DNA from: Homoserinibacter sp. GY 40078
GTDB taxonomy: Bacteria > Actinomycetota > Actinomycetes > Actinomycetales > Microbacteriaceae
Length of the DNA stretch: 64,000 nucleotides
Direction of reading: 5' to 3'
Assembly (NCBI RefSeq): GCF_008017545.1
Contig: NZ_VRTZ01000001.1
Span: 496,001-560,000, forward strand
Shown: positions 39,356 through 63,424 of the stretch, one piece after another
Layout of the letters: the number at the start of each line of letters is the position of its first letter
Position numbering within the stretch: position 1 is the stretch's first letter
The notes under the pieces: model-generated
What the model saw: only the letters and a program-made list of their open reading frames with translations
What the model was told of the DNA's origin: nothing
Database searches by the model: none
Program-made: the position numbers and the translations under genes

Positions 39356-39361
39356 TCCCGA

Positions 39362-44894: not shown

Positions 44895-44904
44895 GGCGCC
44901 AGGA

Positions 44905-44943
44905 CTCGCGGAGTCAGCGCTCGCGGAGTCAGGCCTCGCGGAG
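44905..44943. repeat. 15-bp direct repeat over the scoB stop codon
   Basis: CTCGCGGAGTCAG occurs at 44905-44917 and 44920-44932, and the partial copy CTCGCGGAG at 44935-44943 lies inside scoB. Each unit repeats the scoB end codons Leu-Arg-Glu and the two complete ones an in-frame stop, in the 34-bp gap to rimK. Confidence 0.75.
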
Positions 44944-45573
44944 CGCGACGCGGATCTCCGCGTCCGTCACCGCGCGCACGCCCGCGACGCTGACGCCGGG
45001 CGCGAGCTCGGTGAGCACGAGTCCCTCGGGGCTCACATCGAACGCCGCGAGGTCGGTGATGATCCGGTCGACGACGCCCACACCCGTCAACGGCAGCGTG
45101 CACCTGCCCACGAGCTTTGGCGAGCCGTCCCTCGCGACGTGCTCGGTGAGCACGATCACGCGCGGGGTTCCGGCGACGAGATCCATCGCCCCGCCCATCC
45201 CCTTCACCATCTTCCCGGGGATCATCCAGTTGGCGAGGTCGCCCGTGCCCGACACCTGCATCGCCCCGAGGATCGCGACCTTGACGTGCCCGCCGCGGAT
45301 CATGCCGAAGCTCGTCGCCGAGTCGAAGACGCTGCCGCCGGGCAGGATCGTGACCGTCTGCTTGCCCGCGTTGATGAGGTCGGCGTCCTCCTCGCCCTCC
45401 CACGGGCTCGGGCCCATCCCGAGGAGCCCGTTCTCGCTCTGCAGGGTCACCCGCACCCCCTCGGGGATGTGGTTGGCGACGAGCGTGGGGATGCCGATCC
45501 CCAGGTTCACGTAGTCGCCGTCGGCGAGCTCGGCCGCCGCGAGCGCGGCCATCTCGTCACGCGTCCAGGGCAT
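44929..45573 (-). CDS. scoB: 3-oxoacid CoA-transferase, subunit B
   Basis: This 214-residue beta subunit of a family I CoA-transferase carries the catalytic glutamate in QSENGLLG (E47), which forms the glutamyl-CoA intermediate. [16 protein letters not shown] and GGAMDLVAG are also typical. With subunit A it moves CoA between succinyl-CoA and acetoacetate or a related 3-oxoacid. In this cluster the obvious substrate is acetoacetate released by HMG-CoA lyase. The ATG has GGAGG upstream and lies 14 bp after scoA. Confidence 0.93.
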
Positions 45574-45587
45574 GGGTCCTCCTCGAC

Positions 45588-46286
45588 TCAGCCGCGCGCA
45601 CGCACGGTACGATGCTCGATGTCCTTCGGTCGTCCGCTCCCGCGTACGAGGCGCTGCACGTACACGCCGGGCGTCACCACCCGATCCGGGTCCAGCTCGC
45701 CGAGCGCGACGAGATGCTCAGCCTCGGCGACCGTCACCCGGCCCGCGGTCGCGACCACCGGGTTGAAGTTGCGCGCTGTGTACCGGTAGGCGAGGTTGCC
45801 GCCGGTGTCGGCGGTGTGGGCGTGCACGAGCGCGAGGTCGGCGACGATCGCGCGCTCCTGCACATAGAGCACGCCGTCGAACTCGGCGTGCGGTTTGCCC
45901 TCGGCGACCACCGTGCCGACGCCGGTGCGGGTGTAGAACGCGGGGATGCCTGCCCCGCCCGCCCGCAGCCGCTCGGCGAGCGTGCCCTGCGGCGTGAACT
46001 CGACGGCCAGTCGCCCCTCGAGGTAGTCGGCCGCGAAGCGGCGGTTCTCGCCCACGTAGCTGGAGACGACGCGCGCCACCTGTCCGCTCTCGATGAGGAT
46101 GCCGAGGCCCTTGCCGTCGACGCCCATATTGTTCGAGACGACGGTCAGCTCGGTCACGCCCGCGTCGCGCACGGCGTCGATGAGATCGGCCGGGATGCCC
46201 GAGAGGCCGAACCCGCCGACGGCGATCGTCATGCCGTCGGTCAGCAGGCCCTCGAGCGCCGCCGCGGGGCTCTCGCGGAGCTTCAC
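45588..46286 (-). CDS. scoA: 3-oxoacid CoA-transferase, subunit A
   Basis: This 232-residue alpha subunit contains the CoA-binding segment [47 protein letters not shown] and the C-terminal [13 protein letters not shown]. It works as a heteromer with ScoB. The GTG start overlaps the stop of the hydratase gene by 4 nt, so it belongs to the HMG-CoA operon. Confidence 0.93.
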
Positions 46287-47098
46287 GGCCGCTCGCCCTC
46301 GACGACACCGCGGGCCACGAGTTCACCCGCCGGACCGACCACCGTCACCTGGACACCGCGCTCGGTGCTCCGACCGCGCAGCCGCACCGGCGCATCCACG
46401 AGGACGGGCGCGTGCGAGCGGTAGTCGAGCACGCGCGGGGCGAACCCCGGCTCGTGCGCCGCGACCGCGTCGAGCAGCAGGATGCGCAGCAGCGGCCCGT
46501 GGACGAGCAGGTCGGGCAGCCCCTCCACCTCGCGCGCCCACACGCGGTCGTAGTGGATGCGATGCGTGTTGAGGGTGATCGCGGAGAAGCGGAAGAGCTG
46601 CCGCGCGTCGACGGCTATCTCGCTCTCCCAGTCCGCCGGGCCGTCGGGCGCCGTCGCCGGAGACGGGGCGGGGGCGTTCGGGTCGGAGGCCTCGAGGAAC
46701 ACGTCGTGCCACGTGCTCTCGATCGCGAGTACACCGTCAACCAGGTACTCGCGCACGATGTCGGCGAACACGAGACGACCGGAGCGCCCGGTCTTCTCGA
46801 CGATCTCACCCGCCCGCGCGTGCTGCTCGACGAGCTGTCCGTACCGGAGCGGCTGGTGGAACACCGTGCGCTCGCCGGCGTACATCCGGCGGGGGAGGTC
46901 GAACTCGGGCAGCACCCCGTCGCGTGCGGGGGTGCCATCCGGGCGCAGCTCGTCGAGGGTCTGATCGAAGGGGAAGTAGAGGCCCTCCCAGCCGGCGGGA
47001 AGCTCCGCCCCGGCCTCCGGCGCCGCCGCGTGCGGGGCGAAGGTTCCGCGGTAGGCGCTCGCGGGAGCCGTGGTGAGCGTCTCGCGCCGGGTCGGCAT
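46283..47098 (-). CDS. FAS1-like hot-dog dehydratase/hydratase (mesaconyl- or itaconyl-CoA hydratase-like)
   Basis: This 271-residue protein belongs to the double hot-dog FAS1-like/MaoC group that includes mesaconyl-C4-CoA and itaconyl-CoA hydratases. Supporting segments are LPRRMYAGERTVFHQPLRYGQ, GRLVFADIVREYLVDG and in the second half LFRFSAITLNTHRIHYDR, where the FSAxTxNxHxIHYD pattern holds the catalytic histidine region. It probably adds water to a branched enoyl-CoA. Between a CaiB transferase and HMG-CoA lyase, 3-methylglutaconyl-CoA is the most sensible substrate (inference). Start and upstream stop share one base (TGATG). Confidence 0.82.
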   Translation of the reverse strand: MPTRRETLTTAPASAYRGTFAPHAAAPEAGAELPAGWEGLYFPFDQTLDELRPDGTPARDGVLPEFDLPRRMYAGERTVFHQPLRYGQLVEQHARAGEIVEKTGRSGRLVFADIVREYLVDGVLAIESTWHDVFLEASDPNAPAPSPATAPDGPADWESEIAVDARQLFRFSAITLNTHRIHYDRVWAREVEGLPDLLVHGPLLRILLLDAVAAHEPGFAPRVLDYRSHAPVLVDAPVRLRGRSTERGVQVTVVGPAGELVARGVVEGERP

Positions 47099-48339
47099 CA
47101 GACGACGCCTCCCGCGCGCAGCGCATCGATGCGCTCCTGGTCGTAGCCCGCAAGGCCGGCGAGCACGATGTCGGCGTGCTCGCCCATCCGGTTCGCGGGG
47201 CGCGCCGGGGTCGCCGGGGTCGCGCTCAGCTTGATCGGCTGCCCGAACATCCGGAGCGTCCCGAACTCGCCGTAGTCGGCCTCGACGACCATCTCGCGCT
47301 CGGCGGTGCCCGGCTCGTCGACGACCTCGCCGATATCGCGCACGGCGGTGAGCGGGATCAGGTCTCCCGCGAGCTCCTCGAGCTCGGCGCGGGTGCGGTC
47401 GGCGAACCATGCCAGCACGATCGGCTTCACCCGACGCTCGTACACCTCCGGATCGAAGCGCTTGCGCATCGTGTCGATCTCGGGGTCGGACGCCACCTCG
47501 GGGGTGCCGAACAGCCCACAGCTCGCGCGCCACAGCTTGTCGGTGTACGCGCCGAAGAACACCTGGCCGTCGGCGCAGGGGAAGAGCTCGTAGGGCCGGA
47601 CCCAGGCGTGCGCGTTGCCGTTCGGGCGGGCGATCTTTCCCTCGACCGTGTAATCGACGACGGCCGTCTCGGTCATCGCGATGATGCTGTCGACCTGCGC
47701 GACGTCGACGAGCTGCCCCACGCCGGTCGCCTCCGCGTGACGCAGCGCGGCGAGGGCGCCGATCACGCCGAACAGCGACGCCGACAGGTCACCGATCGTC
47801 ACGCCCACCCGGACGGGCGGCTGATCCGCGTATCCCGTCATCGACCAGATCCCGCCCGCGGCCTGAGCGGTGTTGTCGAACGCGGGTCGCCTGCTGCGGT
47901 ATCCGGTCTGGCCGTAGCCGGAGATCGCGAGATACACGAGACGCGGATTGATCTCGGCGAGCGTCTCGTACGAGACGCCGAGCTTCGCCATCGTGCCCGG
48001 CCGGAAGTTCTCGATGAGCATGTCGGCGTTCGCGACGAGATCCTTCAGGACGGCCTTGCCCTCGTCGCTCGCGAGGTCGAGCGCGAGGCCCAGCTTGCCG
48101 CGGTTGTACTGCCCGTAGTAGCCGCTGACCTCTTCGTCGCCGTGGCGCAGGTAGGGCGGGAAGCCCCGGGAGACGTCCGGGTCGGCGGGGTTCTCGATCT
48201 TCACGACGGTGGCGCCCAGGTCGGCCAGCATCGACCCGGCGTAGGGCCCGGCGAGCACGCGCGAGAGGTCGAGCACCACGACCCCCGAGAGCGAGCCCGC
48301 GGATGCGGCGAGCAGCGGATGCGGTGTCGGCTGGTTCAT
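47098..48339 (-). CDS. CaiB/BaiF family (type III) CoA-transferase
   Basis: This 413-residue family III CoA-transferase has the N-terminal segment VVVLDLSRVLAGPYAGSMLADLGA, VKIENP, LIENFRPGTMAKLG and the catalytic aspartate D155 in PAFDNTAQAAGG. Such enzymes activate dicarboxylates with succinyl-CoA or acetyl-CoA. Human SUGCT, which uses glutarate and 3-hydroxy-3-methylglutarate, and bacterial itaconate CoA-transferase belong to the same family. In this operon it could load CoA on free HMG, 3-methylglutaconate or a similar acid. It lies 22 bp after the HMG-CoA lyase gene. Confidence 0.88.
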   Translation of the reverse strand: MNQPTPHPLLAASAGSLSGVVVLDLSRVLAGPYAGSMLADLGATVVKIENPADPDVSRGFPPYLRHGDEEVSGYYGQYNRGKLGLALDLASDEGKAVLKDLVANADMLIENFRPGTMAKLGVSYETLAEINPRLVYLAISGYGQTGYRSRRPAFDNTAQAAGGIWSMTGYADQPPVRVGVTIGDLSASLFGVIGALAALRHAEATGVGQLVDVAQVDSIIAMTETAVVDYTVEGKIARPNGNAHAWVRPYELFPCADGQVFFGAYTDKLWRASCGLFGTPEVASDPEIDTMRKRFDPEVYERRVKPIVLAWFADRTRAELEELAGDLIPLTAVRDIGEVVDEPGTAEREMVVEADYGEFGTLRMFGQPIKLSATPATPARPANRMGEHADIVLAGLAGYDQERIDALRAGGVV

Positions 48340-48361
48340 GGTGCGGCTCCGTTCGCGCGGT

Positions 48362-49333
48362 TCAGGAGACCCCGGCGGCGGTCAGGGCGGTGGCGACCCG
48401 CGACGCGATCGGGCGGCCGAGGGTCCGGGACATCCACTGCGAGGTCCGCACGAGGGACTCGAGGTCGACCCCGGTCTCGATACCGAGCCCGTGCAGCAGC
48501 CAGACGAGGTCCTCGGTTGCGAGGTTACCGGTCGCTCCCTTGGCGAAGGGGCAGCGCCCAAGGCCGCCGGTCGAGCTGTCGAACTCTGTGATCCCGACGC
48601 GCAGCGCCGCCTGGACGTTGCCGAGCGCCTGCCCGTAGGTGTCGTGCAGGTGCAGGGCGATCCGCTCGCGGGACACGCCCGCCGCGACCGTGCGCTCGAC
48701 CGCCTCGATCACGTGGCCGGGGGTGCCGGTGCCGATCGTGTCGCTCAACGCGACCGTCCCGGCGCCCGCACCGTGCAGCTCCGCCGCGAGATCCGCGACC
48801 CGCTCGATCGGCACGGACCCCTCCCACGGGTCGCCGAACGACATCGACAGGTACCCGCGGACCGGCACGCCCTCGACGCTCGCCGCGGCGATGACCTCGC
48901 GTGCGCGATCCAGCGCTCCCGCGAGCGTCGTGTTGAGGTTCGCCTGGGCGAAGGTCTCGGTGGCGCTCACGACGACCGACACCTCGCGGACCCCGGCCGC
49001 GAGGGCGCGCTCCAGTCCGCGGACGTTGGGCACGAGGGCCACGCCGCGCGCGCCCTCCGGCACCTCGACCTCGCCGACGACCTCCTCGGCATCCGCCAGC
49101 TGCGGGATCCAGCGGGCGGGCACGAAGCTCGTGAGCTCGACCGCGCCGAGGCCGCTCGCGTAGAGGCGGCGGCACAGCTCGATCTTCACGTCGGCGGGCA
49201 GGATCTCGGGCTCCGCCTGCAGCCCGTCGCGCGGACCCACCTCGTACACGCGCACGCGGCTCGGCAGGCTCGGGTCGGCGACCGGCTGGGGGCGCGGATG
49301 CCACACCGGGCGGGTGCGTTCGGCGTCGCTCAT
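48362..49333 (-). CDS. mvaB: Hydroxymethylglutaryl-CoA lyase
   Basis: This 323-residue TIM-barrel enzyme cleaves HMG-CoA to acetyl-CoA and acetoacetate. YEVGPRDGLQ carries the active-site Arg-Asp pair. The metal ligands are in LHLHDTYGQALGN, and the catalytic cysteine loop is GGLGRCPFAKGATGNLATED. The first ~25 residues (RTRPVWHPRPQP) are an extension. The ATG overlaps the stop of the HMG-CoA reductase gene (ATGA), as in the mvaAB operon of Pseudomonas mevalonii. Confidence 0.95.
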   Translation of the reverse strand: MSDAERTRPVWHPRPQPVADPSLPSRVRVYEVGPRDGLQAEPEILPADVKIELCRRLYASGLGAVELTSFVPARWIPQLADAEEVVGEVEVPEGARGVALVPNVRGLERALAAGVREVSVVVSATETFAQANLNTTLAGALDRAREVIAAASVEGVPVRGYLSMSFGDPWEGSVPIERVADLAAELHGAGAGTVALSDTIGTGTPGHVIEAVERTVAAGVSRERIALHLHDTYGQALGNVQAALRVGITEFDSSTGGLGRCPFAKGATGNLATEDLVWLLHGLGIETGVDLESLVRTSQWMSRTLGRPIASRVATALTAAGVS

Positions 49334-50601
49334 CGCGCACCCCGCAGCTCGGCGAGCACGTCCTGCGCGTGCTCGAGGCGGATGCGTCGGTCGGCGACGA
49401 TCCGCTCGGCGACGCGCGTGATCTCGTCGCCGAGAGCGCCGGCGGACGCCGCGATGGTGCGGGCGTGGAGCGTCATGTGTCCGCGCTGGATCCCTTCGGC
49501 GGCGAGCGCCCGCAGCGCGGCGAGGTTCTGCGCGAGTCCGACCGCGGCGATCGTGGCCGCGAGCTCCCCCGACGACGCGACGCCGAGCAGGCGCACCGCG
49601 GCCTGGGCGGCGGGGTGCGCACGGGTGGCTCCGCCCACGAGACCCACGGCGAGGGGCAGTTCGAGGGTTCCGACGAGGTGGCCATCAGCGCCGACCTCGT
49701 AGTGCGACAGCGCCGTGTACCCGCCCCCGCGCGCAGCGTGGGAGTGGGCGCCGGATTCGACGGCACGGGTGTCGTTCCCGGTGGCGAGCACGACCGCGGT
49801 GACCCCGTTCATGATGCCCTTGTTGTGGGTGGCCGCGCGGTACGGGTCAGCTTCGGCGAAGGCGCTCGCGTGCACGATGTCGCGCACGACATCCGGCCCG
49901 CCGAGCAGCTCGGCGTCGAAGACCGCGCGCGCACGGACGAGACGCTGATCGGCCTTGTTACTGAGGATGCGCAGGAGCGAACGCCCGCCGGCCAGCTCTG
50001 CGATGCGGGGGGCGAGGGCCTCGGCCATCGTGTTCACGGCGTTCGCACCCATCGCGTCGCGGACGTCCACGTGCAGATGTGCGACGACGTGCACGCCCGT
50101 GCGGGTCGAGAGGGTTCTCACGACCAGATCGCGGGCGCCTCCGCCGAGACCGGCGAGCACCGGGTCCTGCGCATCCGCGAATGCCAGGAGCTCGTCGCGC
50201 GCCTCCAGCAGGCGCAGTCGCGCCCCCTCGGGGTCGACCGCGTCGACCACCTGGATCTGCGCGATCATGATGCTGCCCGTGCTGGAGGTGCGGAATCCGC
50301 CGTGCTGGCGGGTCATGCGGGCGGCGTTCGACGCGGCCGCCACGACGCTCGGCTCCTCGGTGGCCATCGGCACGAGGCGATCCACGCCGTCGATGGTGAA
50401 GTTGGTGGCGACCCCCACCGGGATGCCGATGATCCCGATGACGTTCTCGATGAGGTGGTCTGCCGCCTCGACACCCAGGCCGTGCTCGGGATCGAGGGCG
50501 TCGAGCGAGGCCTCGTCGAGCTCCGCCGCACGCGTCACGACCGAACGGCGCTCGCTCGGATCGAGGTCGCGCAGTCCCGACAGGCGGCTGGTGATCGGCA
50601 C
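49330..50601 (-). CDS. mvaA: HMG-CoA reductase, class II (degradative)
   Basis: This 423-residue class II enzyme interconverts mevalonate and HMG-CoA. It contains ENVIGIIGIPVGVATNFTIDG and PMATEEPSVVAAASNAA. The residues matching the P. mevalonii catalytic set are present: a glutamate at ~83, K261 (THNKGIMNG), D277 (GNDTRA) and H375 (RGHMTLHAR). DAMGANAVNT is the cofactor-binding region. Adjacency to HMG-CoA lyase indicates oxidation of mevalonate with NAD+ (catabolism) and not isoprenoid synthesis. The GTG has GGAG upstream; the frame extends further but without conservation. Confidence 0.95.
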   Translation of the reverse strand: MPITSRLSGLRDLDPSERRSVVTRAAELDEASLDALDPEHGLGVEAADHLIENVIGIIGIPVGVATNFTIDGVDRLVPMATEEPSVVAAASNAARMTRQHGGFRTSSTGSIMIAQIQVVDAVDPEGARLRLLEARDELLAFADAQDPVLAGLGGGARDLVVRTLSTRTGVHVVAHLHVDVRDAMGANAVNTMAEALAPRIAELAGGRSLLRILSNKADQRLVRARAVFDAELLGGPDVVRDIVHASAFAEADPYRAATHNKGIMNGVTAVVLATGNDTRAVESGAHSHAARGGGYTALSHYEVGADGHLVGTLELPLAVGLVGGATRAHPAAQAAVRLLGVASSGELAATIAAVGLAQNLAALRALAAEGIQRGHMTLHARTIAASAGALGDEITRVAERIVADRRIRLEHAQDVLAELRGAR

Positions 50602-50665
50602 AGGTGCTCCTTCGGGATCGCGAGCCGGTCGAGCCGCGCGCCTCGCGGTCGACCTCCTCGACTTC

Positions 50666-50671
50666 ACCCTA
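50666..50671 (-). promoter_or_regulatory. -10 box of the mevalonate/HMG operon (TAGGGT)
   Basis: On the minus strand TAGGGT predicts a start near 50659 and a 5' leader of about 58 nt. The -35 position (TACGCG) is poor, which fits an activator-dependent promoter. Confidence 0.45.
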
Positions 50672-50698
50672 GGAACGGGCTGAGCGACCGCGTATGGG

Positions 50699-50708
50699 GG
50701 GTCGACCC
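50699..50708. promoter_or_regulatory. Palindrome GGGTCGACCC, possible PucR-type operator
   Basis: This perfect 10-bp palindrome is centred about 44 bp upstream of the predicted mvaA start, where activators commonly bind. CCCATGCGTGGG, with 4-bp complementary arms, overlaps its edge. The link to the upstream regulator is inferred. Confidence 0.4.
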
Positions 50709-50734
50709 ATGCGTGGGCGAATGCCGTGTGCGAA

Positions 50735-52540
50735 TCAACCGCCGTGCAGTCTCTCGCTCAGCTCATCCAGCCGAGTCGCGAGACCGATGCGGAAGAGCTG
50801 CTCGTCGTCGCGCCACCGTTCACCGAGCACGGCGTCGAGCCGAGCGAGCCGCTGGAGGATGGTGTTGGTGTGGAAATTGAGGGCACGGGCGGTGCGGGTG
50901 GGGCTCGCGTTGTTGCGCACGAACGCCCGCAGAGTGCCGAGCAGATCGGTGCCGCGGGTCTCGTCGTAGCGCCGAACGGCGCCGATCGTCGCATCGAGGA
51001 AGGTCGCGAGCGAGCGTTCGTCGGCGTCCAGCACTGCTGAATAGGGCAGGTAGTCGTCGGTGCGCGCGGTGACCCCGTCGGTGCCGAGCGCCGCGAGCAG
51101 CCGTGCGGTGCGGAGCGCCTGCGACGCGGCGGCCGGCAGCGCACCGGGGGAGCGCGGAGGCACCACCGCGAGCACGGGGTGCCGGACGGCGCGAGCGAGG
51201 CGGGCTCGCAGCTGCTCGACATCCGGAGAGAACGCCTGCCCGTCGTAGCAGGCGACCACGAATCCGCGGTACTCACCGACGAGCGCGCGCTGATCGAGCG
51301 ACAGGGCGAGGGTGCGCGCGGCGTTCGCACGGTGCTCCCCGGGGACCACGAAGAGCAGGAGCGCGTCGAGGCGATCGAGGTCGACGCCGAGGCGACGCAC
51401 CCGGCGCTCGACATCGGCGCGGCGCTCGGGCACGGCGTCGAGAAGGTCGGCCACGAGTTCGCTCTGGGTGCGATGCTCGGCACCGGCGACCGCCTCCTGC
51501 TGAAGCGCGAGCAGCGCTCCGACCTGGGCGGCACGCTCGACCGTGCGGCGGTCCACCGCGCCGAGCTCGAAGTCCCCCTCGCCGAGCAGCATGGTCCCGA
51601 AGTACTGGGGGCCCGCCATGAGGGCCGCGACACCGTGCACGCCGGAGGCACCCGAGACCACCACGCAGTGTGCGGATGCGCGACTCTCGTCGATCGCGGC
51701 GAGGGTCGACGGAGCGAGCTCGACCATGCCCTCGGGCAACGGCAGGCCCGCCGCCGCGATGAGCCGCCCGCTCGCGTCGACGATCGCGACCGTGCGGCCG
51801 AGCGCGGTGGAGAGCGTCTCTGCGACGGGCGAGAACCCGCCGCCCGCGAGGACGGCGTGCACGAGCTCCTGGTGGACCGTGTTGGCGCGGTCACGCTCGG
51901 TGAGGTGCCCCGTGAGGTCGTCGAGCGCCTGCCGGGTCTCGTCCTCCGACCGCCGCAGGTCGCGGAGGGTCCGCGCCGTCTGCAGCACGATCGAGGCGTG
52001 GTCGGCGAGCGCCTGGAACAGGGCGATCTCCTCTGGGCTGAAGTCGTGCTCCTCTCGGTCGGCGACGAACAGCACGCCGAGCACCTCGTCCTCGGTCAGC
52101 ATGGGCACCCCGAGGATCGAGACGAGGCCCTCGGCCGAGACGGCGTCGTCGATGCCCGCCTCGTGCCGGTCGCTCGGGTACTCGGCGTAGCGCGTGACCC
52201 ATTGGGCGGCGCGGCTCTCGACGACGGCGCTCGCGAGGCCCGCGCCGGCGGGGACCCGCAGCTGCTGGAATGCGGCGCTCACCGATCCGGCCGTCTCGCG
52301 CACCCGCAGCTCGCGGGATGCGGGATCGAATTCCGAGAGATACGTGACGTCGGCGCCCATCATCTCGTGGGCGCGCTGGACGAGCCGGGCGAGCACCGCG
52401 TCCGAGTCGCGCAGCTCGGCGAGCTCGCGCGCACTCGCGAAGAGGGCGCTCAGCTCGTGCTCGCGCCGACGCAGCCGGGTGTTCTCGCGGCGCAGGCGAT
52501 CCACCTCGTCGGCGAGCCGGGCGGCGTCGTCCTGGGTCAT
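50735..52540 (-). CDS. GAF/PucR-type transcriptional regulator
   Basis: This 601-residue regulator has a short N-terminal coiled coil (ARLADEVDRLRRENTRLRRRE) and a GAF domain (~30-190; VTYLSEFDPASRELRVRETAG, LGVPMLTEDEVLGVLFVADREEHDF). A middle PucR-like region follows, and a C-terminal PucR helix-turn-helix (LLGTLRAFVRNNASPTRTARALNFHTNTILQRL). The GAF domain presumably senses a small metabolite. It lies between the HMG/mevalonate operon, 133 bp downstream on the same strand, and a divergent amidohydrolase gene (140-bp gap). It may activate one or both. Confidence 0.88.
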   Translation of the reverse strand: MTQDDAARLADEVDRLRRENTRLRRREHELSALFASARELAELRDSDAVLARLVQRAHEMMGADVTYLSEFDPASRELRVRETAGSVSAAFQQLRVPAGAGLASAVVESRAAQWVTRYAEYPSDRHEAGIDDAVSAEGLVSILGVPMLTEDEVLGVLFVADREEHDFSPEEIALFQALADHASIVLQTARTLRDLRRSEDETRQALDDLTGHLTERDRANTVHQELVHAVLAGGGFSPVAETLSTALGRTVAIVDASGRLIAAAGLPLPEGMVELAPSTLAAIDESRASAHCVVVSGASGVHGVAALMAGPQYFGTMLLGEGDFELGAVDRRTVERAAQVGALLALQQEAVAGAEHRTQSELVADLLDAVPERRADVERRVRRLGVDLDRLDALLLFVVPGEHRANAARTLALSLDQRALVGEYRGFVVACYDGQAFSPDVEQLRARLARAVRHPVLAVVPPRSPGALPAAASQALRTARLLAALGTDGVTARTDDYLPYSAVLDADERSLATFLDATIGAVRRYDETRGTDLLGTLRAFVRNNASPTRTARALNFHTNTILQRLARLDAVLGERWRDDEQLFRIGLATRLDELSERLHGG

Positions 52541-52610
52541 CGGGGTCCTCCGTCGTGCACGGGCCCTTCCAGTCTCGTGCGGCAGCCGTCGCGACGGGAG
52601 GGCGGAACTC

Positions 52611-52654
52611 ACATGAGTATGCCCTGGGGGTGGCTGAACATCACATACGGATGT
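52611..52654. promoter_or_regulatory. Imperfect inverted repeat between regulator and amidohydrolase genes
   Basis: ACATGAGTATG (52611-52621) and CATACGGATGT (52644-52654) are complementary at 9 of 11 positions with a 22-bp spacer. They lie directly upstream of the amidohydrolase -10 box. A regulator site is likely; which protein binds is unknown. Confidence 0.45.
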
Positions 52655-52668
52655 CGCCCCATGGCTCG

Positions 52669-52674
52669 TATCGT
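52669..52674 (+). promoter_or_regulatory. -10 box of the first amidohydrolase gene (TATCGT)
   Basis: TATCGT lies 6 nt before the GTG at 52681, giving a leaderless transcript and deciding that start. Confidence 0.5.
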
Positions 52675-52680
52675 GACAGG

Positions 52681-54186
52681 GTGACGACCCCTGCGACCGT
52701 GCCCGATCTCGTGCTGCGCGGGGCACGCCTCCCCCGCCTCGACGGCGAGTGCGACGTACTGCTGCGCGGCGGCGAGATCGCCGAGATCGCGCCGCGGGGC
52801 CGGATCGCCGAGGGCGGGGCACGCTCCGTGGAGCTCGGCGGGCGCCTGCTGCTCCCGGGGCTGTGGGATGAGCACGTGCACTTCACCCAGCACGTCATCC
52901 GGCGTCGGCGGCTCGACCTTGCCGACACGACGAGCCCCGCCGAGGTGCTCGACCGGCTGCGCGCCGAACTGGCACGGCGCACCGACCTCGACGCGGGCGA
53001 GCTGATCATGGGCTACGGATTCCGCGACGGCCTGTGGACCGAGTCTCCGACCCTCGCAGCCATCGACGACGTCTCGCGGACGGTCCCGGTGGCCCTCGTG
53101 AGCGCCGACCTGCACTGCGCCTGGGTGAACACCCCGGCAGCACGGCTTCTGGAGCTCGAACCCGATGCGAGCGGCGTGGTGCGCGAGGGACCGTGGATCG
53201 CAGCCTCCGCACGACTCGAGGCCGCGAACGCAGTGCCGATCTCGGCATACCGCGACGCGGCCGAGGCGGCCGCCCGACGTGGGGTCGTGGGGATCGTCGA
53301 CTACGAATACGCCGACAACGTGGCCGAGTGGCGGGAGCGCGTTCGGGAGGGCGTCGATCAGCTGCGCGTCGATGTGGCCGTCTGGCCCGATCGTCTCGAT
53401 GAGGCCCTCGCCGCTGGCCACCGCACGGGCGATCTGCTCGAGCCCTCCGGGCTCATCCGCATGGGGCGGCTCAAGGTCGTCGTCGATGGATCGCTCAACA
53501 CCCGCACCGCGTGGTGCTGGGATCCGTACCCGGGAGCCGAGCCGACCGCGGACGACGCGTACGGCGTCGTCAGCACTTCGGCGGCGGAGCTGCGCCGCCT
53601 GCTGGCCCACGCCCGCGGCGGAGAGATCGGCGCGGCGGTCCACGCGATCGGCGACCACGCCACGACGGAGGTGCTCGACGCCTTCGAAGAGCTCGGCATG
53701 AGCGGGATCGTCGAGCACGCCCAGCTCATCTCGGACCGCGACCTCCCGCGGTTCGCGCGCCTCGGGCTGGTTGCGAGCGTGCAGCCGGAGCACGCGATGG
53801 ACGACCGCGACGTCGCGGAGCACCACTGGCTCGGGCGCACGGGTCGCGCCTTCGCATTCGGGTCGCTGCATGCCGCGGGGGCGGAGCTGCGCCTCGGGTC
53901 GGACGCTCCGGTGGCCCCACTCGATCCGTGGATCTCGATGTCGGCCGCCATCTCGCGCAGCCGCGGCGACCGCGACGCGTGGCATCCGGAGCAGCGCCTC
54001 CCCTTCGAGGTCGCGTTCGCGGCGTCGACCCGCGGCCGCACGACGGTAGCCGTGGGGGATCCGGCCGACCTCGTGGTGGTCGAGAGCGACCCGGCGACAC
54101 TCCCGCGCGACGCCCTGCGCGAGCTGCCGGTCGCGGCGACGCTCGTCGGCGGGCGAGCCACCTGGTCGGGCACGCTGCTCGACTAG
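52681..54186 (+). CDS. Amidohydrolase-3 family hydrolase
   Basis: This 501-residue metal-dependent hydrolase belongs to the amidohydrolase 3 (YtcJ/NfdA) group. The first metal site is in LLLPGLWDEHVHFTQHV (HxH), further histidines lie in AAVHAIGDHATTEVLDAF and IVEHAQLI, and the aspartate in RLGSDAPVAP. Such enzymes cleave N-formyl or N-acyl compounds; the real substrate is unknown. It converges, with 7 bp between stops, with a second enzyme of the same family, and diverges from the PucR regulator gene. Confidence 0.85.
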   Translation: MTTPATVPDLVLRGARLPRLDGECDVLLRGGEIAEIAPRGRIAEGGARSVELGGRLLLPGLWDEHVHFTQHVIRRRRLDLADTTSPAEVLDRLRAELARRTDLDAGELIMGYGFRDGLWTESPTLAAIDDVSRTVPVALVSADLHCAWVNTPAARLLELEPDASGVVREGPWIAASARLEAANAVPISAYRDAAEAAARRGVVGIVDYEYADNVAEWRERVREGVDQLRVDVAVWPDRLDEALAAGHRTGDLLEPSGLIRMGRLKVVVDGSLNTRTAWCWDPYPGAEPTADDAYGVVSTSAAELRRLLAHARGGEIGAAVHAIGDHATTEVLDAFEELGMSGIVEHAQLISDRDLPRFARLGLVASVQPEHAMDDRDVAEHHWLGRTGRAFAFGSLHAAGAELRLGSDAPVAPLDPWISMSAAISRSRGDRDAWHPEQRLPFEVAFAASTRGRTTVAVGDPADLVVVESDPATLPRDALRELPVAATLVGGRATWSGTLLD

Positions 54187-54193
54187 CCGCGGA

Positions 54194-55771
54194 TCAGCGA
54201 GCCGCCGCCCACACCTTCTCGCCGGCGAGCCAGGTCTCGGCGACGCGCACCCGTGCGATCTCGTCCGCGGGAACCGTGAGGACGTCCGCGTCCAGCACCA
54301 CGAAGTCCGCCGCTGCGCCCGCAGCGATGGTCGCGGGGGTGCCGACGGGTGCAAGTCGTGCCGCCCGCGAGGTGTACAGCGTGAGGGCCTCGTCCACCGT
54401 GATGGCCGACGGCGCCCCCACGTCCGTGCCATCGGCGGCGCGACGATCGACCGCGGCCTGCACCGAGAGGAAGACGTCGTCGGCGTCGCTCCACGCCGTC
54501 GCGGGACGGTCGGAGGAGAGCGCGAGCGGCAGGGGCGTGTCGGCGAGCGCCCGCAACGGGTACGCCCGGCCGTCGGAGACATCGGGGAGGTTCAGCTTGT
54601 AGGCCTCGTACTCCGCGAACAGGAACACGGTGTGGGTCGCGATGCCGAAGCGCATCCGGCCGCCGACGATGCGGGAGAGCAGCTCGTCGGGCACGAGGGT
54701 CACATGCTCGAGGCGGATCGACGGCACGTCATCGAGCCAGGGCTCCTGGTCGCCGAAGAGCTCGATCACCCTTTCGAGCGCCTGGTCGCCCATCGCGTGC
54801 ACCGCGAGCTGCACGCCGTTGCGGCGAGCCCACTCTCCCGCGGCGAGCGCGCTCTCGTCGGAGATCATCTGGATGCCGCAGCCGTCCGAATCCGGGTACG
54901 GTTCGCGCACCCACGCCGTGCGGTTCGAGAACGCGCCGTCCATGAGGATCTTGACCCCCGCGATCCGGATGCGTCCGGTTCGGGCGTCGTCGTCGAGCGT
55001 CTCCGGCAGCGCCTCGGGGTCCCAGCCGGGGTAGAGCGCGACGCGAGGCCGGAATCCGGCGACGGCCGCGTCGCGGAACACGGCGAGCGGCTCGCGGATC
55101 ACGCTCGACAGCAGGTCGCAGACACCCACGATCCCGTGCGAGAGGTAGTGCTCATCGAGCCCCACGACCCGGCGCACAAGCTCGCCGTGATCGGGCTCAG
55201 GCCTGCAGTCGGCGACCGCCGCGACCGCCGCGAGCTCGGTCAGCACGCCCGTGGGATGGCCGTCGGCGTCGCGCTCGAACCGCGCCCCCTCGGGGTCGGG
55301 CGTCTCGCGATCGATGCCGGCGATCTCCAGCGCGCGGGTGTTGCAGGCGGCGGAGTGCCCGTCGCAGCGCCAGACGAGCACGGGACGGTCGGCCGACACC
55401 TCGTCGAGGTCGGCGGCCGTGGGTGCGCGCCCCTCAGGGAAGCGGGAGTCGTCGTATCCGCGTCCCACGATCCATGCGTCGTCGGGGCGTTCCGCGCCGT
55501 GGGCGCGCAGCACCTCGATCAGCCCCGCGAGCGAGGTGACCCGGGGCGGCAGGCAGTCGGCGGCATCCGCCGCCTCGGCCATGAGCGCCGGATGCGTGTG
55601 CAGGTCGAGCAGGCCCGGCAGCACGGTGCGCCCGCCGAGGTCGATCGCCGCCTCGTCCGCGGCATCCGCGGCGTCGCCCACCCACGTGATCACGCCGTCC
55701 TCCACGCGGAAGGCGGAGGCACGCGAGTCGGGCCCCGCTCCCGTGAACACGGTCGCATTGGTGAACAGCAT
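54194..55771 (-). CDS. Amidohydrolase-3 family hydrolase, last gene of the ABC importer operon
   Basis: This 525-residue amidohydrolase 3 enzyme has the metal motif LLDLHTHPALM, VLVWRCDGHSAACNTRAL, GVKILMDGAFSNRTAW, VQLAVHAMGDQALERV, IRLEHVTLV and the aspartate in LALSSDRPAT. The ATG overlaps the upstream permease stop by one base, so it is translated with the oligopeptide-type ABC importer. The importer probably brings in the amide or peptide-like substrate that this enzyme cleaves in the cytoplasm. It is similar to the convergent neighbour but clearly diverged. Confidence 0.86.
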   Translation of the reverse strand: MLFTNATVFTGAGPDSRASAFRVEDGVITWVGDAADAADEAAIDLGGRTVLPGLLDLHTHPALMAEAADAADCLPPRVTSLAGLIEVLRAHGAERPDDAWIVGRGYDDSRFPEGRAPTAADLDEVSADRPVLVWRCDGHSAACNTRALEIAGIDRETPDPEGARFERDADGHPTGVLTELAAVAAVADCRPEPDHGELVRRVVGLDEHYLSHGIVGVCDLLSSVIREPLAVFRDAAVAGFRPRVALYPGWDPEALPETLDDDARTGRIRIAGVKILMDGAFSNRTAWVREPYPDSDGCGIQMISDESALAAGEWARRNGVQLAVHAMGDQALERVIELFGDQEPWLDDVPSIRLEHVTLVPDELLSRIVGGRMRFGIATHTVFLFAEYEAYKLNLPDVSDGRAYPLRALADTPLPLALSSDRPATAWSDADDVFLSVQAAVDRRAADGTDVGAPSAITVDEALTLYTSRAARLAPVGTPATIAAGAAADFVVLDADVLTVPADEIARVRVAETWLAGEKVWAAAR

Positions 55772-56763
55772 CAGCCCATCCTCACTCGGGGGTCCAGCAG
55801 GCCATAGACGAGGTCGATCACGAGGTTCAGTGTGACCACGAGGAACGCGGCGAACATCGTGAGACCGACGATCAATTGGATGTCGACCGCTCCGACCGCC
55901 TCGATCAGCAACGATCCCATCCCGGGGATCGCGAACACCCGCTCGGTGATGACCGCGCCGCCGAGCAGCACGCCCAGGTCGAGACCGAAGACGGTCACGA
56001 CCGGCAGGAGCGCCGTGCGGAGGCCGTGCCGCGCGATGACCCGCCCCTCGGAGAGACCCTTCGCCCGGGCCGTGCGGATGTAGTCGAGGCTCATCACCTC
56101 GAGCATCTCGCTGCGGGTCAGCCGGGCGTAGACCGCCGCCGACACGATCGCGACCGCGACCCACGGCAGGATCAGGTGGCTGAACCACTCGATCGGCGAG
56201 TCCTCGAAGGGCACGTACCCGGACGTCGGCAGCCAGCGCAGGGTGAACCCGATGATCAGGATCACGAGGATGCCGGCGAGGTAGACCGGCGTCGAGATCC
56301 CCGCGATCGAGAAGACCATGATGCCCCGGTCGATCACCGAGTTGCGGCGGAGCGAGGCGATGAGGCCGCCCAGCACGCCGGTCACGAGGAACAGAATCGC
56401 CGCGCCGAGGGCGATCGACGCCGTCGCCGGGAAGCGCTCGGCGATCAGGTCGGTGACGCTCGCGTTGCGCAAGAAGGAATAGCCGAAGCACGGGGCGTCG
56501 CATTCGACCGTGACGGTCGAGCCGAAGGTGCGCCCGAAGAGGATCCCCTTGAGGAACTCGACCAGCTGCACGAACCACGGCTGATCGACGCCCATGTACT
56601 CGCGGACCTTCTCGAGGTTCGCGTCGGTGCACGGGCGACCGCAGGCGAGGCGTGCGGGGTCGGACGGCAGCAGGTAGAACAGCGCGAACGTGACGACCGC
56701 GATGATGAGCAGCACGATCACGATGCCGAGCAGGCGGAACGAGAGGTAGCGCAGGAAGTTCAT
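55771..56763 (-). CDS. Oligopeptide-type ABC permease (DppB/OppB)
   Basis: This 330-residue permease has six predicted membrane helices and the EAA loop EVMSLDYIRTARAKGLSEGRVIARHGLRTALLPV. The N-terminus LRYLSFRLLGIVIVLLIIAVVTFAL and the segment RVFAIPGMGSLLIEAV are typical of DppB/OppB. The extracytoplasmic loop contains four cysteines (ACGRPC, ECDAPC), which may form disulfides. It overlaps the second permease gene by 4 nt. Confidence 0.93.
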   Translation of the reverse strand: MNFLRYLSFRLLGIVIVLLIIAVVTFALFYLLPSDPARLACGRPCTDANLEKVREYMGVDQPWFVQLVEFLKGILFGRTFGSTVTVECDAPCFGYSFLRNASVTDLIAERFPATASIALGAAILFLVTGVLGGLIASLRRNSVIDRGIMVFSIAGISTPVYLAGILVILIIGFTLRWLPTSGYVPFEDSPIEWFSHLILPWVAVAIVSAAVYARLTRSEMLEVMSLDYIRTARAKGLSEGRVIARHGLRTALLPVVTVFGLDLGVLLGGAVITERVFAIPGMGSLLIEAVGAVDIQLIVGLTMFAAFLVVTLNLVIDLVYGLLDPRVRMG

Positions 56764-57698
56764 CGTCGGGCCGTCCGCGGGTCGAGCGCATCGCGCAGGC
56801 TGTCGCCGAACAGGTTGAAGGCGAGGGTGATGAGGAACAGGGCCGCTCCCGGGAACACGAGGTACATGGGGCTCGTGCGCACCCAGAGCACCGCGTCGCC
56901 GATGGTGCGCCCCCAGGACGGTGTCGGCGGGGTGACCCCGACGCCCAGGAACGAGAGCGCGGCCTCCGCCGCGATCATGCCGGGGATGATGATCGAGGTG
57001 ACGACGATGATCGTCGCGCCGACGTTCGGCAGCACCTGCCCGAGCACGATCCGCCACGAGCGGGCACCCATGGCCTTCGACGCGACGACGAAGTTCCGCT
57101 CGCGCAGCGCGAGCGCCTGCCCGCGCACGATGCGCGAGATCCCGGGCCAACCGAAGAGGCCGATGACGAGCGCGATGAACGGCGGACGCGGCACGTCGGC
57201 GGGGATGATCGCCATGAGCGCGATGAGGAACACGAGCGTCGGGAAGCCGAACATCACGTCGACCCCGCGGCTGACGATGCGGTCGTACCAGCCGCCGAAG
57301 TAGCCCGACGTGATGCCGACGATCGTGCCGATGAGCACCGAGAGCACCGTGGCGGAGATGCCGATGAAGAGCGAGGTGCGCGCGCCGTAGACCACGATCG
57401 CGAACAGGTCGCGGCCCGTGAGCGGCTCGACCCCGAACCAGTGATCGGCGCCGATGCCGCCGCCCCATCCCGTGGGCTGCCCCTTCGCATCGAGCAGGTC
57501 CTGGTGATACGTGTAGGGGTCGTTGCCGGTGATGCCGGTGAGCTGGTCGGCGAAGACGGCCGCGAGCACGAAGACCACGATCGTCGTGGACGACGCCACC
57601 GCCCACGGATCGCGGGCCAGTTTGCCGAGCAGCGTGCGGAAGCCGGTCTTCCGGGTCGGCACCGCGAGATCGTCGCGGACCGCTGTCGTCGTGGTCAT
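56760..57698 (-). CDS. Oligopeptide-type ABC permease (DppC/OppC)
   Basis: This 312-residue second permease begins with a cytoplasmic tail and a first helix (WAVASSTTIVVFVLAAVFA), then HWFGVEPLTGRDLFAIVVYGARTSL and the EAA loop LRERNFVVASKAMGARSWRIVLGQVLPN. AEAALSFLGVGVTPPTPSWG is diagnostic for DppC/OppC. It overlaps the ATPase gene by 4 nt and the first permease gene by 4 nt. Confidence 0.93.
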   Translation of the reverse strand: MTTTTAVRDDLAVPTRKTGFRTLLGKLARDPWAVASSTTIVVFVLAAVFADQLTGITGNDPYTYHQDLLDAKGQPTGWGGGIGADHWFGVEPLTGRDLFAIVVYGARTSLFIGISATVLSVLIGTIVGITSGYFGGWYDRIVSRGVDVMFGFPTLVFLIALMAIIPADVPRPPFIALVIGLFGWPGISRIVRGQALALRERNFVVASKAMGARSWRIVLGQVLPNVGATIIVVTSIIIPGMIAAEAALSFLGVGVTPPTPSWGRTIGDAVLWVRTSPMYLVFPGAALFLITLAFNLFGDSLRDALDPRTARR

Positions 57699-61044: not shown

Positions 61045-61106
61045 TGAAGGGGCCTCCTCGGCTCTGGCTGCGATCAGGGTGGTGCGGAGGTGTAACGGGT
61101 GCTCCG

Positions 61107-61112
61107 AGGCTA
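61107..61112 (-). promoter_or_regulatory. -10 box of the ABC importer operon (TAGCCT)
   Basis: On the minus strand TAGCCT predicts a start near 61100 and a 55-nt leader before the ATG at 61044. The rest of the 174-bp gap to the paiB-like gene shows nothing clear. Confidence 0.4.
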
Positions 61113-61218
61113 ATCACGGGGGTGAACGCGGGAGTATGTGAAGTCCACCCACAGCCCCGGCGTCCGGGTGTGCGAACCACCGGTCTCGATCGGCGCGGCA
61201 GAACCGCATGCTGGGGTG

Positions 61219-61836: not shown

Positions 61837-61954
61837 CGCGCTCGGGCGCCCGCCCGCTGACCCGCCCGGGCACGGGTGATGCTCACACCTCCGAGCCGGA
61901 TGCGTGGCGGTCTCCACCATGTCGACCGTGGGCCGTGCGTGACAGGCTCGGAGG

Positions 61955-62983: not shown

Positions 62984-62993
62984 CGAGGGCGCG

Positions 62994-63422
62994 ATGCTGA
63001 TCCAGCGACGCGGCGAGGAGCACCACGACTGGGCGCTCTACCGGGGCGAGGGTCGGGTCGGCATCGAGTGGTACTTCCGCGAGCAGTCGGCCCTGCCGAC
63101 GTCGATCATGCTCTACCACCTGGAGCCGGGCACCTCGGAGGGCGAGCACCATCACCTCGAGGGCGACCCGGACAGCTGCTCGGTCGAGACCCAGCACGAG
63201 CTCTACCTCGTGGTCTCGGGCGAGGTCGTCATGACCGTGGGCGACGAGAGCGCGACCCTCGGGCCCGGTGACGCCGTGTACGTCCCGGAGGGCGTGCGGC
63301 ACGGCGTCAGGAACGAGTCGGACGCGCCCGCGGAGCTCGTGCTCCTGTTCGGCGAGCCGACCGGGCAGACTCCCTACACGGTGCAGGCCGCACCCGCGCC
63401 GACGACCATCGCGAAGGACTGA
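62994..63422 (+). CDS. Cupin domain protein
   Basis: This 142-residue single-domain cupin has motif 1 EGEHHHLEGDPDSC..E (histidines and acidic residue for metal binding) and motif 2 GDAVYVPEGVRHGVRN. The central strand ELYLVVSGEVVMTVGDE is characteristic. It could bind a metal and either isomerise or oxidise a small molecule, or act as a sensor. It lies 10 bp after the ornithine cyclodeaminase gene, so the two are co-transcribed. Confidence 0.85.
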   Translation: MLIQRRGEEHHDWALYRGEGRVGIEWYFREQSALPTSIMLYHLEPGTSEGEHHHLEGDPDSCSVETQHELYLVVSGEVVMTVGDESATLGPGDAVYVPEGVRHGVRNESDAPAELVLLFGEPTGQTPYTVQAAPAPTTIAKD

Positions 63423-63424
63423 TC

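What the first reader, a model, noticed from the sequence alone, without database searches (positions are those of the whole stretch)
44929..52540. Mevalonate / 3-hydroxy-3-methylglutarate catabolic island with an itaconate-pathway-like CoA-transferase and hydratase pair
Seen: class II HMG-CoA reductase with all catalytic residues, HMG-CoA lyase, CaiB-type CoA-transferase, FAS1-like hydratase and ScoA/ScoB are in one minus-strand run with 1-4 nt overlaps or short gaps, next to a GAF-PucR regulator. Known: P. mevalonii mvaAB oxidises mevalonate; itaconate degradation pairs a CaiB transferase and a FAS1-like hydratase with a citramalyl-CoA lyase; human SUGCT (CaiB family) can use 3-hydroxy-3-methylglutarate. 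Inference: here the same transferase-hydratase pair feeds HMG-CoA lyase instead. The operon would then have two entrances: mevalonate via the reductase, and free HMG, 3-methylglutaconate or a related acid via CoA transfer and hydration. Both end in acetyl-CoA, with acetoacetate reactivated by ScoAB. I know of no described actinobacterial pathway with this exact gene set.
Basis: partly seen in the sequence, partly recalled or inferred. Interest (0 to 1): 0.78.

Follow-up and report, generated by a model that had tools for sequence, protein, structure and literature searches.

The report
Probable fungal-siderophore-eating bacterial gene island
An actinobacterium carries a block of genes that looks like a kit for eating the iron-carrying molecules (siderophores) that fungi release: one half would turn their mevalonate-derived side arms into acetyl-CoA and the other half would recycle their ornithine core; this is inferred from genes, not yet tested.

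Summary
With DXR present and no recognisable mevalonate kinase, HMGR is catabolic. They are the left fifth of a 41.4-kb island absent from this site in three same-genus genomes. The rest includes peptide-type ABC importers, amidohydrolases, an esterase-like hydrolase, a homologue of haem N-hydroxylamine dehydratase/piperazate synthase (enzymes of N5-hydroxyornithine), ornithine cyclodeaminase and PutA. N5-hydroxyornithine acylated by anhydromevalonate is the unit of fungal fusarinine and coprogen siderophores. CaiB plus a hydratase (FAS1-like, or a crotonase in other genomes) stays with HMGR (11 of 12 primary loci found without HMGR as bait; the twelfth is contig-cut) more than with HMGL (8 of 12). 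I therefore read the pair as reversing fungal SidI/SidH, anhydromevalonate to mevalonate, not as a second entrance to HMGL. Siderophore catabolism is inferred (0.62), not shown. New variant of a known kind; interest 0.8.

The parts
44929..45573 (-). ScoB, 3-oxoacid CoA-transferase subunit B
   Evidence: TIGR02428 322 bits, cut-off 243.6
45588..46286 (-). ScoA, 3-oxoacid CoA-transferase subunit A
   Evidence: TIGR02429 243 bits, cut-off 128.5
46283..47098 (-). FAS1-like enoyl-CoA hydratase, itaconyl-CoA-hydratase-like
   Evidence: Pfam PF13452; profile of 9 island homologues hits itaconyl-CoA hydratase 8khg at 1.5e-53
47098..48339 (-). CaiB/BaiF family III CoA-transferase; a clade of its own (55% identity or more in HMGR islands; next relatives in the plasmid collection about 42% or less)
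   Evidence: PF02515 1.7e-117
48362..49333 (-). HMG-CoA lyase
   Evidence: PRK05692 347 bits; 2ftp 2.4e-78
49330..50601 (-). class II degradative HMG-CoA reductase
   Evidence: TIGR00532 423 bits; PDB 9v7y, 6dio, 1qax; alignment A1
50735..52540 (-). GAF-PucR regulator
   Evidence: PF13185, PF13556 on the longer ORF; PucR homologue beside HMGR in many of the relatives
52681..54186 (+). AmhA, Amidohydro_3 amidohydrolase (start inferred); candidate for release of the acyl arm
   Evidence: PF07969 2e-51; directly beside PaiB in 11 of 11 further loci, though 7 kb from PaiB here; inside the HMGR run in L040, L086-L088, L091, L092
54194..55735 (-). AmhB, second Amidohydro_3 amidohydrolase (start inferred)
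   Evidence: PF07969 4e-78; 59-60% homologues beside AmhA in L041-L043, L087, L088
55771..56790 (-). peptide-type ABC permease 1
   Evidence: PF00528 6.5e-40
56760..57698 (-). peptide-type ABC permease 2 (by position and homology to other islands; no family search run)
57695..59404 (-). fused double ABC ATPase, oligopeptide type
   Evidence: PF00005 two stretches, PF08352
59401..61044 (-). peptide-type solute-binding lipoprotein
   Evidence: GsiB/DppA-like, all below cut-off
61138..61836 (+). PaiB-family protein, homologue of N-hydroxylamine dehydratase NohD and piperazate synthase
   Evidence: PF04299; PDB 9or1 1.6e-28, 9ebk 4e-22; alignment A3
61955..62983 (+). ornithine cyclodeaminase
   Evidence: NF005762 equivalog 514 bits, cut-off 350; 1u7h 5.8e-114
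62994..63422 (+). cupin
   Evidence: PF07883; homologues in L041-L043, L088
63425..64000 (+). alpha/beta-hydrolase (esterase/lactonase-like), runs past the window end
   Evidence: PF00561 on L050:3926-4762; below all NCBIfam cut-offs
44896..64000 (.). left 19.1 kb of the 41.4-kb accessory island; it continues for 22.3 kb past the window
   Evidence: site comparison with G180, G058, G127

Best explanation
The region is the acyl-arm module of an island for catabolism of fungal hydroxamate siderophores whose unit is N5-anhydromevalonyl-N5-hydroxyornithine (fusarinine, triacetylfusarinine, coprogen). Proposed route: peptide-type ABC importers take up the siderophore or its fragments; esterase and amidohydrolases (alpha/beta-hydrolase, AmhA, AmhB, M20) cut ester, N-acetyl and hydroxamate-acyl bonds, giving anhydromevalonate and N5-hydroxyornithine. 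CaiB plus the hydratase add water to anhydromevalonate using CoA only catalytically (anhydromevalonyl-CoA to mevalonyl-CoA, whose CoA is passed to the next anhydromevalonate), releasing mevalonate. HMGR oxidises mevalonate to HMG-CoA, HMGL splits it to acetyl-CoA and acetoacetate, ScoAB activates acetoacetate. The PaiB/NohD homologue removes the N-O of hydroxyornithine; ornithine cyclodeaminase and PutA carry the core to proline and glutamate. Shown by sequence: gene identities, conservation of the neighbourhood, no visible isoprenoid use for mevalonate, one accessory block at one site. Inferred: substrates, order of steps, and that the pair works on anhydromevalonate.
For: One accessory block at this site. 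NohD/piperazate-synthase homologue with H83, T123, Y173, K196, D200, K201 invariant in 6 of 6 island proteins (counterparts from passages of PMC13274692, mapped by a near-constant offset of 21-23). Ornithine cyclodeaminase over its equivalog cut-off, 1u7h-like. PutA just upstream of PaiB in G513 and G543. PaiB-AmhA adjacent in 11 of 11 loci that I fetched out of the 30 matches. Such genes present elsewhere in G513 and G537, whose HMGR operons lack them. PaiB in 6 of 9 CaiB-bearing vs 20 of 385 other genomes. HMGR beside CaiB in 11 of 12 primary HMGR-independent loci. Hydratase exchanged for a crotonase in 13 of 25 loci. DXR present; the three GHMP kinases read as GalK, IspE, ThrB. PMC10500206 passages: fungi make anhydromevalonyl-CoA from mevalonate by SidI/SidH and SidF puts it on N5-hydroxyornithine. 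PMC12290011 passages: an itaconate CoA-transferase plus hydratase turn itaconate into citramalate independent of the starting succinyl-CoA.
Against: No experiment. The nearest characterised relatives of CaiB (mesaconate, glutarate/HMG transferases) and of the hydratase (itaconyl-CoA) act on dicarboxylates. Asn63/Asn66 of piperazate synthase are not kept, and PaiB proper is reported to bind haem but not to form N-N bonds. The PaiB-AmhA pair also occurs in genomes without HMGR, so it is not specific to the island. G309, G329 and G401 lack PaiB at 1e-30 and ornithine cyclodeaminase; the latter is over cut-off in only 9 of 21 island-bearing genomes examined. G127, which lacks the island at this site, has an 82% identical PutA elsewhere, so PutA may not belong to the unit. 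Two further CaiB copies (G362, G572) have no HMGR within the stretch fetched, which makes 11 of 14 if they are counted. 68 of the 80 named HMGR loci lack the CaiB clade. No siderophore receptor or iron gene was recognised; the importers are peptide-type. AmhB, the S-Me-THD/HyuA genes and the cupin are unexplained.
Confidence: 0.62

Rival explanations
1. One reading: two entrances, mevalonate via HMGR and a free C6 dicarboxylate (3-methylglutaconate, HMG) via CaiB and hydratase, both meeting at HMG-CoA and HMGL. A siderophore version exists: ferrichrome A carries methylglutaconyl arms.
For: CaiB and FAS1 relatives of known function act on dicarboxylates; HMGL is in the same run here; methylglutaconyl arms occur in ferrichrome-type siderophores (PMC10500206 passages; PMC8781417 table passage).
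Against: CaiB-hydratase pairs stay with HMGR more than with HMGL; nine of 25 CaiB loci have HMGR without HMGL in the fetched stretch, and the only one with HMGL and no HMGR (L087) is cut by a contig end. A dicarboxylate route would not need HMGR.
Confidence: 0.19
2. Plain mevalonate/mevalonolactone catabolism: HMGR, HMGL and ScoAB degrade environmental mevalonate, the alpha/beta-hydrolase opens the lactone, CaiB/hydratase interconvert mevalonate stereoisomers or dehydration products, and the other island genes serve unrelated amine or peptide use.
For: A minimal module (regulator, TRAP or TctA-type transporter, HMGR, usually HMGL) is common elsewhere, e.g. L214, L215.
Against: Does not explain conserved co-location with PaiB, AmhA, ornithine cyclodeaminase and peptide importers. 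None of the 12 CaiB-clade loci of the named scan shares the transporter clusters of the plain modules.
Confidence: 0.14
3. HMGR works in the biosynthetic direction in an isoprenoid pathway.
For: HMGRs of some other members of the family sit beside ORFs that read like mevalonate-pathway genes.
Against: Own genome has DXR and only three GHMP kinases, which read as GalK, IspE and ThrB; the window HMGR is in a separate 69-77% identical group beside HMGL.
Confidence: 0.02

Closest known systems
Pseudomonas mevalonii mvaAB mevalonate catabolism (recalled)
   Same: degradative class II HMGR followed by HMGL, acetoacetate as product
   Different: here joined to CaiB, hydratase, ScoAB, amidohydrolases, peptide importers and hydroxyornithine-type enzymes; no dedicated mevalonate transporter recognised
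Itaconate degradation ict-ich-ccl (PMC12290011, passages; the CaiB type of the P. aeruginosa transferase is recalled)
   Same: CoA-transferase plus itaconyl-CoA-hydratase-like protein; a published pair turns the free acid into the free hydroxy acid independent of the starting succinyl-CoA
   Different: no citramalyl-CoA lyase; HMGR and HMGL instead; hydratase related to 8khg only at profile level here
E. coli carnitine system CaiB/CaiD (recalled)
   Same: logic: CoA-transferase plus hydratase interconvert a free enoic and a free 3-hydroxy acid with catalytic CoA; in other genomes the hydratase here is crotonase-type like CaiD
   Different: not L-carnitine CoA-transferase (145 bits, cut-off 413); crotonase of L102 far below the CaiD cut-off (169 vs 500)
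Fungal SidI-SidH-SidF siderophore synthesis (PMC10500206, passages)
   Same: proposed intermediates: mevalonate, mevalonyl-CoA, anhydromevalonyl-CoA, N5-hydroxyornithine
   Different: reverse direction; CoA-transferase in place of a ligase; bacterial; sequence relation to SidH not tested
Bacteria growing on ferrichrome A or desferrioxamine B (Warren and Neilands 1964, Zaya 1998, Winkelmann 1999, as cited in PMC10866069, passages)
   Same: siderophore as carbon source
   Different: those reports, as cited, describe hydrolysis to simpler hydroxamates; here genes for both hydroxamate products are proposed

Membership tests
Class II degradative HMG-CoA reductase | TIGR00532 over curated cut-off | tested here: met
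   423 bits vs 260
Class II degradative HMG-CoA reductase | catalytic Glu, Lys, Asp, His | tested here: met
   E83, K261, D277, H375 invariant in A1 (one of ten rows incomplete); P. mevalonii counterparts recalled
Class II degradative HMG-CoA reductase | oxidises mevalonate in vivo | not testable with these tools
   supported only by absent mevalonate-pathway kinases
HMG-CoA lyase | PRK05692 over cut-off | tested here: met
   347 vs 246 bits
Itaconate degradation pathway | itaconyl-CoA hydratase homologue | tested here: met
   8khg 1.5e-53 by profile
Itaconate degradation pathway | citramalyl-CoA lyase in the cluster | tested here: not met
   none among the operon genes scanned; the lyase is HMGL
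Succinate--HMG/glutarate CoA-transferase (SUGCT) | NF052585 equivalog cut-off | tested here: not met
   282 vs 750 bits
Succinyl-CoA:mesaconate CoA-transferase | NF041294 equivalog cut-off | tested here: not met
   308 vs 700 bits
Ornithine cyclodeaminase | NF005762 equivalog cut-off | tested here: met
   514 vs 350 bits; GGDCPGKTEL stretch shared with 1u7h
NohD / piperazate synthase haem enzymes | sequence homology and haem His, Thr, Tyr, Lys, Asp, Lys | tested here: met
   9or1 1.6e-28, 9ebk 4e-22; six residues invariant in 6 of 6, mapped by near-constant offset, not by a direct alignment to piperazate synthase
NohD / piperazate synthase haem enzymes | Asn63 and Asn66 of piperazate synthase | tested here: not met
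   Gly85 and Asp88 in the window protein by the same offset
NohD / piperazate synthase haem enzymes | activity on N5-hydroxyornithine | not testable with these tools
   needs assay
PutA | proline dehydrogenase and aldehyde dehydrogenase domains | tested here: met
   PF01619 and PF00171; 361 bits, below the PutA equivalog cut-off of 747
Siderophore catabolic system | growth on or conversion of a siderophore | not testable with these tools
   inferred from gene content only

The most novel reading that the evidence does not exclude
This is a complete genetic route for bacterial mineralisation of fungal anhydromevalonyl-hydroxamate siderophores, none of which I found described: N-O bond removal by a haem N-hydroxylamine dehydratase relative, CoA-catalytic hydration of anhydromevalonate to mevalonate by a CaiB/hydratase pair, and a mevalonate-to-acetoacetate operon. 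Genomes that carry both a FAS1-type and a crotonase-type pair in one island (G362, G572) would handle the cis and trans isomers separately.
Probability: 0.48. Interest if true: 0.88.

Novelty: new variant of a known kind. Interest (0 to 1): 0.8.

Why it matters
Fungal siderophores are common in soil (recalled) and their environmental fate is called little known in PMC12364333 (abstract and passages). Reports of bacteria using siderophores as carbon source, as cited in PMC10866069, stop at simpler hydroxamates. A defined gene set would let one predict which bacteria destroy fungal iron carriers, give a new role to degradative HMG-CoA reductases and to PaiB-family haem proteins, and make an old observation testable with knock-outs.

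Tried and rejected
Considered and set aside: isoprenoid biosynthesis (DXR present, no mevalonate kinase recognised); itaconate degradation (no citramalyl-CoA lyase); membership of SUGCT, mesaconate or carnitine CoA-transferases (all below cut-off); plain mevalonate use (does not explain the rest of the island). A strong HMGR score does not separate catabolic from biosynthetic HMGRs in this family: six of the eleven strong hits (L006-L010, L015) are only 47-50% identical and lack the other operon genes; in the three of these six that I looked at (L035, L037, L039) neighbours read, by eye, like mevalonate-pathway genes. Paper search for a SUGCT structure gave nothing usable. NohD's own paper is not held, so I know NohD only from PDB molecule names and a citation. 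The S-Me-THD/HyuA pair, AmhB, the cupin and the second ABC system remain unexplained. Structure prediction and fold search were not used.

Counting notes. The 25 CaiB loci: WIN, L040, L086, L087, L088, L089, L091, L092, L106, L108 (same genome as L090), L111 (FAS1 type, 11); L102, L104, L107, L112, L113, L114 (same as L218), L155, L162, L193, L194, L195, L216, L217 (crotonase type, 13); L110 (neither, 1). Left out of the 25 as further CaiB copies of the same islands: L051, L052, L196, L197. L092 was counted, the others. The 12 primary HMGR-independent loci: L086-L092, L195, L193 and L194 (the two of 326 plasmid records above 55% identity; the rest, about 42% or less, were not examined for HMGR), L216 and L217. 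'Nearby' means inside the fetched stretch, 12-25 kb, sometimes cut by a contig end.


Full report
OBSERVATION. HMGR (GTG start 50601) passes the NCBI degradative model; HMGL, ScoA and ScoB pass theirs; CaiB is a family III transferase that reaches none of the curated equivalog cut-offs; the FAS1-like protein is, by a profile of nine island homologues, closest to itaconyl-CoA hydratase 8khg among solved structures.

DIRECTION OF HMGR. The genome (2.98 Mb, 99.9% complete) has one HMGR, has DXR of the MEP pathway, and has three GHMP-type kinases that I read, from recalled motifs and not from a family search, as galactokinase, IspE and homoserine kinase. I see no route from mevalonate to isoprenoids, so HMGR should run from mevalonate to HMG-CoA. 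In the family, 33 of 199 genomes drawn have an HMGR; of the eleven strong hits, the window and L040-L043 (74-75% identical) have HMGL beside HMGR, the other six do not.

THE UNIT IS AN ISLAND. The three other genomes of the genus in that draw lack HMGR. In G180 the conserved block ending at own position 540,895 (window 44,895, end of the RimK gene) and the block starting at 582,329 are 45 bases apart; in G058 and G127 nearly the same two blocks flank 2.6 and 2.1 kb of other DNA. The accessory unit is thus 41.4 kb, own C1:540,896-582,328: window 44,896 to the window end and 22.3 kb beyond. PutA needs care: the genome has another copy elsewhere, and G127, which lacks the island at this site, has an 82% identical PutA elsewhere.

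THE NEIGHBOURHOOD IS CONSERVED. The eight closest genomes (own included, 45% identity or more) all have it beside CaiB, and seven of the eight beside HMGR, the eighth (G362) being cut at a contig end. Of the 23 others I fetched the surroundings of nine (L093-L101): none had HMGR. A scan of named genomes with HMGR, capped at 80 loci, found CaiB-clade genes in 12, and the FAS1 version in Nesterenkonia (L106), Nocardiopsis (L108) and Murinocardiopsis (L111). AmhA lies inside the run in L040, L086-L088, L091 and L092, and is not near it in L089 and L090.

THE HYDRATASE IS EXCHANGEABLE. Of 25 CaiB loci, 11 have FAS1, 13 a crotonase, one (Luteimonas L110) neither. G362 and G572 carry a FAS1 pair and a crotonase pair in the same region (L087 with L196, L088 with L197). 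Replacement by an unrelated hydratase says that hydration of an enoyl-CoA is the conserved task.

WHICH ENZYME DOES THE PAIR FEED? If it made HMG-CoA it should follow HMGL; if it made free mevalonate it should follow HMGR. Among 12 primary CaiB loci found without HMGR as bait, HMGR is adjacent in 11 (the other is the contig end of G362) and HMGL in 8. The second CaiB copies of G362 and G572, found in the same way, have no HMGR in the stretch fetched; with them the count is 11 of 14. Over all 25, HMGL is missing nearby in nine: L108, L110, L111, L114, L155, L162, L195, L216, L217. All 11 genomes searched have an HMGL homologue at 1e-30 (40-66% identity), among them the seven distinct genomes tested from those nine; the genomes of L216 and L217 were not tested. 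The chemistry has a published precedent: an itaconate CoA-transferase passes CoA from citramalyl-CoA to itaconate, so that with the hydratase itaconate becomes citramalate independent of the starting succinyl-CoA (PMC12290011, passages read). The carnitine CaiB/CaiD system, recalled, has the same logic with a crotonase. I therefore propose anhydromevalonate to mevalonate.

WHERE ANHYDROMEVALONATE COMES FROM. Fungi convert mevalonate to anhydromevalonyl-CoA (SidI, SidH) and transfer it to N5-hydroxyornithine (SidF); this is the unit of fusarinine C, triacetylfusarinine C and coprogen, and ferrichrome-type siderophores can carry cis- or trans-anhydromevalonyl or methylglutaconyl arms (PMC10500206; PMC8781417; passages). 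PMC12305646 (passages) describes fusarinines with a Z double bond and L-ornithine. The other half of the island fits this unit. The PaiB protein's best matches of known structure are named N-hydroxylamine dehydratase NohD, then PaiB and piperazate synthase. Piperazate synthase acts on N5-hydroxy-L-ornithine, and the residues reported for haem binding, catalysis and substrate contact (His-61, Thr-102, Tyr-150, Lys-173, Asp-177, Lys-178; PMC13274692, passages) map by a near-constant offset of 21-23 to H83, T123, Y173, K196, D200, K201, invariant in 6 of 6 island proteins. Asn-63 and Asn-66 are not kept, and PaiB proper is reported to bind haem without forming N-N bonds, so a dehydratase or other N-O chemistry is the safer guess. 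The ornithine cyclodeaminase passes its equivalog cut-off and resembles 1u7h. PutA, the M20 hydrolase, the esterase-like hydrolase and the N-methyl-amino-acid oxidase would suit the proline/P5C, Nalpha-acetyl, ester and N-methyl groups of known siderophores (Nalpha-methylcoprogen: titles and abstracts in the listings); these last assignments are inference.

INDEPENDENT CHECKS. PaiB-anchored search: 26 of 394 genomes. I fetched 11 of the 30 listed matches; in 11 of 11 PaiB is directly beside an AmhA homologue (40-60% identical), most of them in genomes without the CaiB clade, so the pair is wider than this island. In the window the two are 7 kb apart. G513 and G537, whose HMGR operons lack these genes, carry them at a second place: G513 has OCD, hydrolase, DAO, PutA, PaiB, AmhA, PucR; G537 has AmhA, PaiB, M20, a peptide ABC system, HyuA-like and S-Me-THD genes. 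PutA also lies just upstream of PaiB in G543. PaiB occurs in 6 of 9 genomes with the CaiB clade and 20 of 385 without (Fisher p 3e-6; by genus 4 of 6 vs 7 of 132, p 3e-4; relatedness not corrected). So there seem to be two modules, acyl arm and hydroxyornithine core, joined in the window's genome.

AGAINST. No assay exists. G309, G329 and G401 have the operon but no PaiB at 1e-30 and no OCD. OCD over cut-off is in 9 of 21 island-bearing genomes examined and 0 of 3 same-genus genomes without the island; it lies within the island in G000, G362 and G572 and in the second region of G513. The loci L114, L162, L216 and L217 show only CaiB, crotonase, HMGR, a MocR-like or PucR-like regulator and a branched-chain-type binding protein among the families I tracked, which could mean that these bacteria take up the free acid. 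Conversely 68 of 80 named HMGR loci lack the CaiB clade. No iron or siderophore receptor gene was recognised.

LITERATURE. Ten searches were made. In those listings I saw no bacterial gene set for fungal siderophore catabolism and no HMGR-CaiB-hydratase pathway; growth of bacteria on siderophores is known (cited in PMC10866069, passages). Of all papers cited I saw passages or listings only, no whole text. Papers outside the held library were not searched.

VERDICT. Observation confirmed; interpretation partly supported; the best reading is the acyl-arm operon of a fungal-siderophore catabolic island (0.62), a new combination of known enzyme families.

Noticed in passing
L035, L037, L039 (and L036, L038, L044): In six other genomes of the family an HMGR 47-50% identical to the window's lacks the other operon genes; in the three loci looked at it begins ORFs of 763-817 aa and neighbours read like diphosphomevalonate decarboxylase and HMG-CoA synthase.
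   Followed up: partly
L213:8001-10618: Haloarchaeal plasmid (Salinigranum) with degradative-type HMGR directly followed by an AtuA-family gene; a Halalkalicoccus plasmid hit lists the same two features.
   Followed up: no
L258 (own genome C1:1504500-1524000): A second PaiB-AmhA pair (49% and 46% identical) outside the island, as in other genomes without the island; suggests a wider hydroxamate role for the pair.
   Followed up: partly
L194:6067-8037 and L113:1322-3304: About 656-aa protein with a PNPOx-like flavin domain, NAD-binding reductase domain and 2Fe-2S domain (domains scanned in L194 only) next to the CaiB-crotonase-HMGR operon.
   Followed up: no
L214 and L215: Plain mevalonate-type modules on alphaproteobacterial plasmids: aminotransferase-like (MocR-type) regulator, TRAP or tripartite tricarboxylate transporter, HMGR, HMGL; the transporters are candidate mevalonate importers.
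   Followed up: partly
window 36691-39878: Type III polyketide synthase-like gene, a rhodanese and an FAD-binding monooxygenase-like gene close together.
   Followed up: no
L266:3227-5395: HipA-like kinase and DUF2255 gene at the right end of the island.
   Followed up: no
L110:7763-11263: Luteimonas locus with the CaiB clade and HMGR but neither hydratase in the fetched stretch.
   Followed up: no
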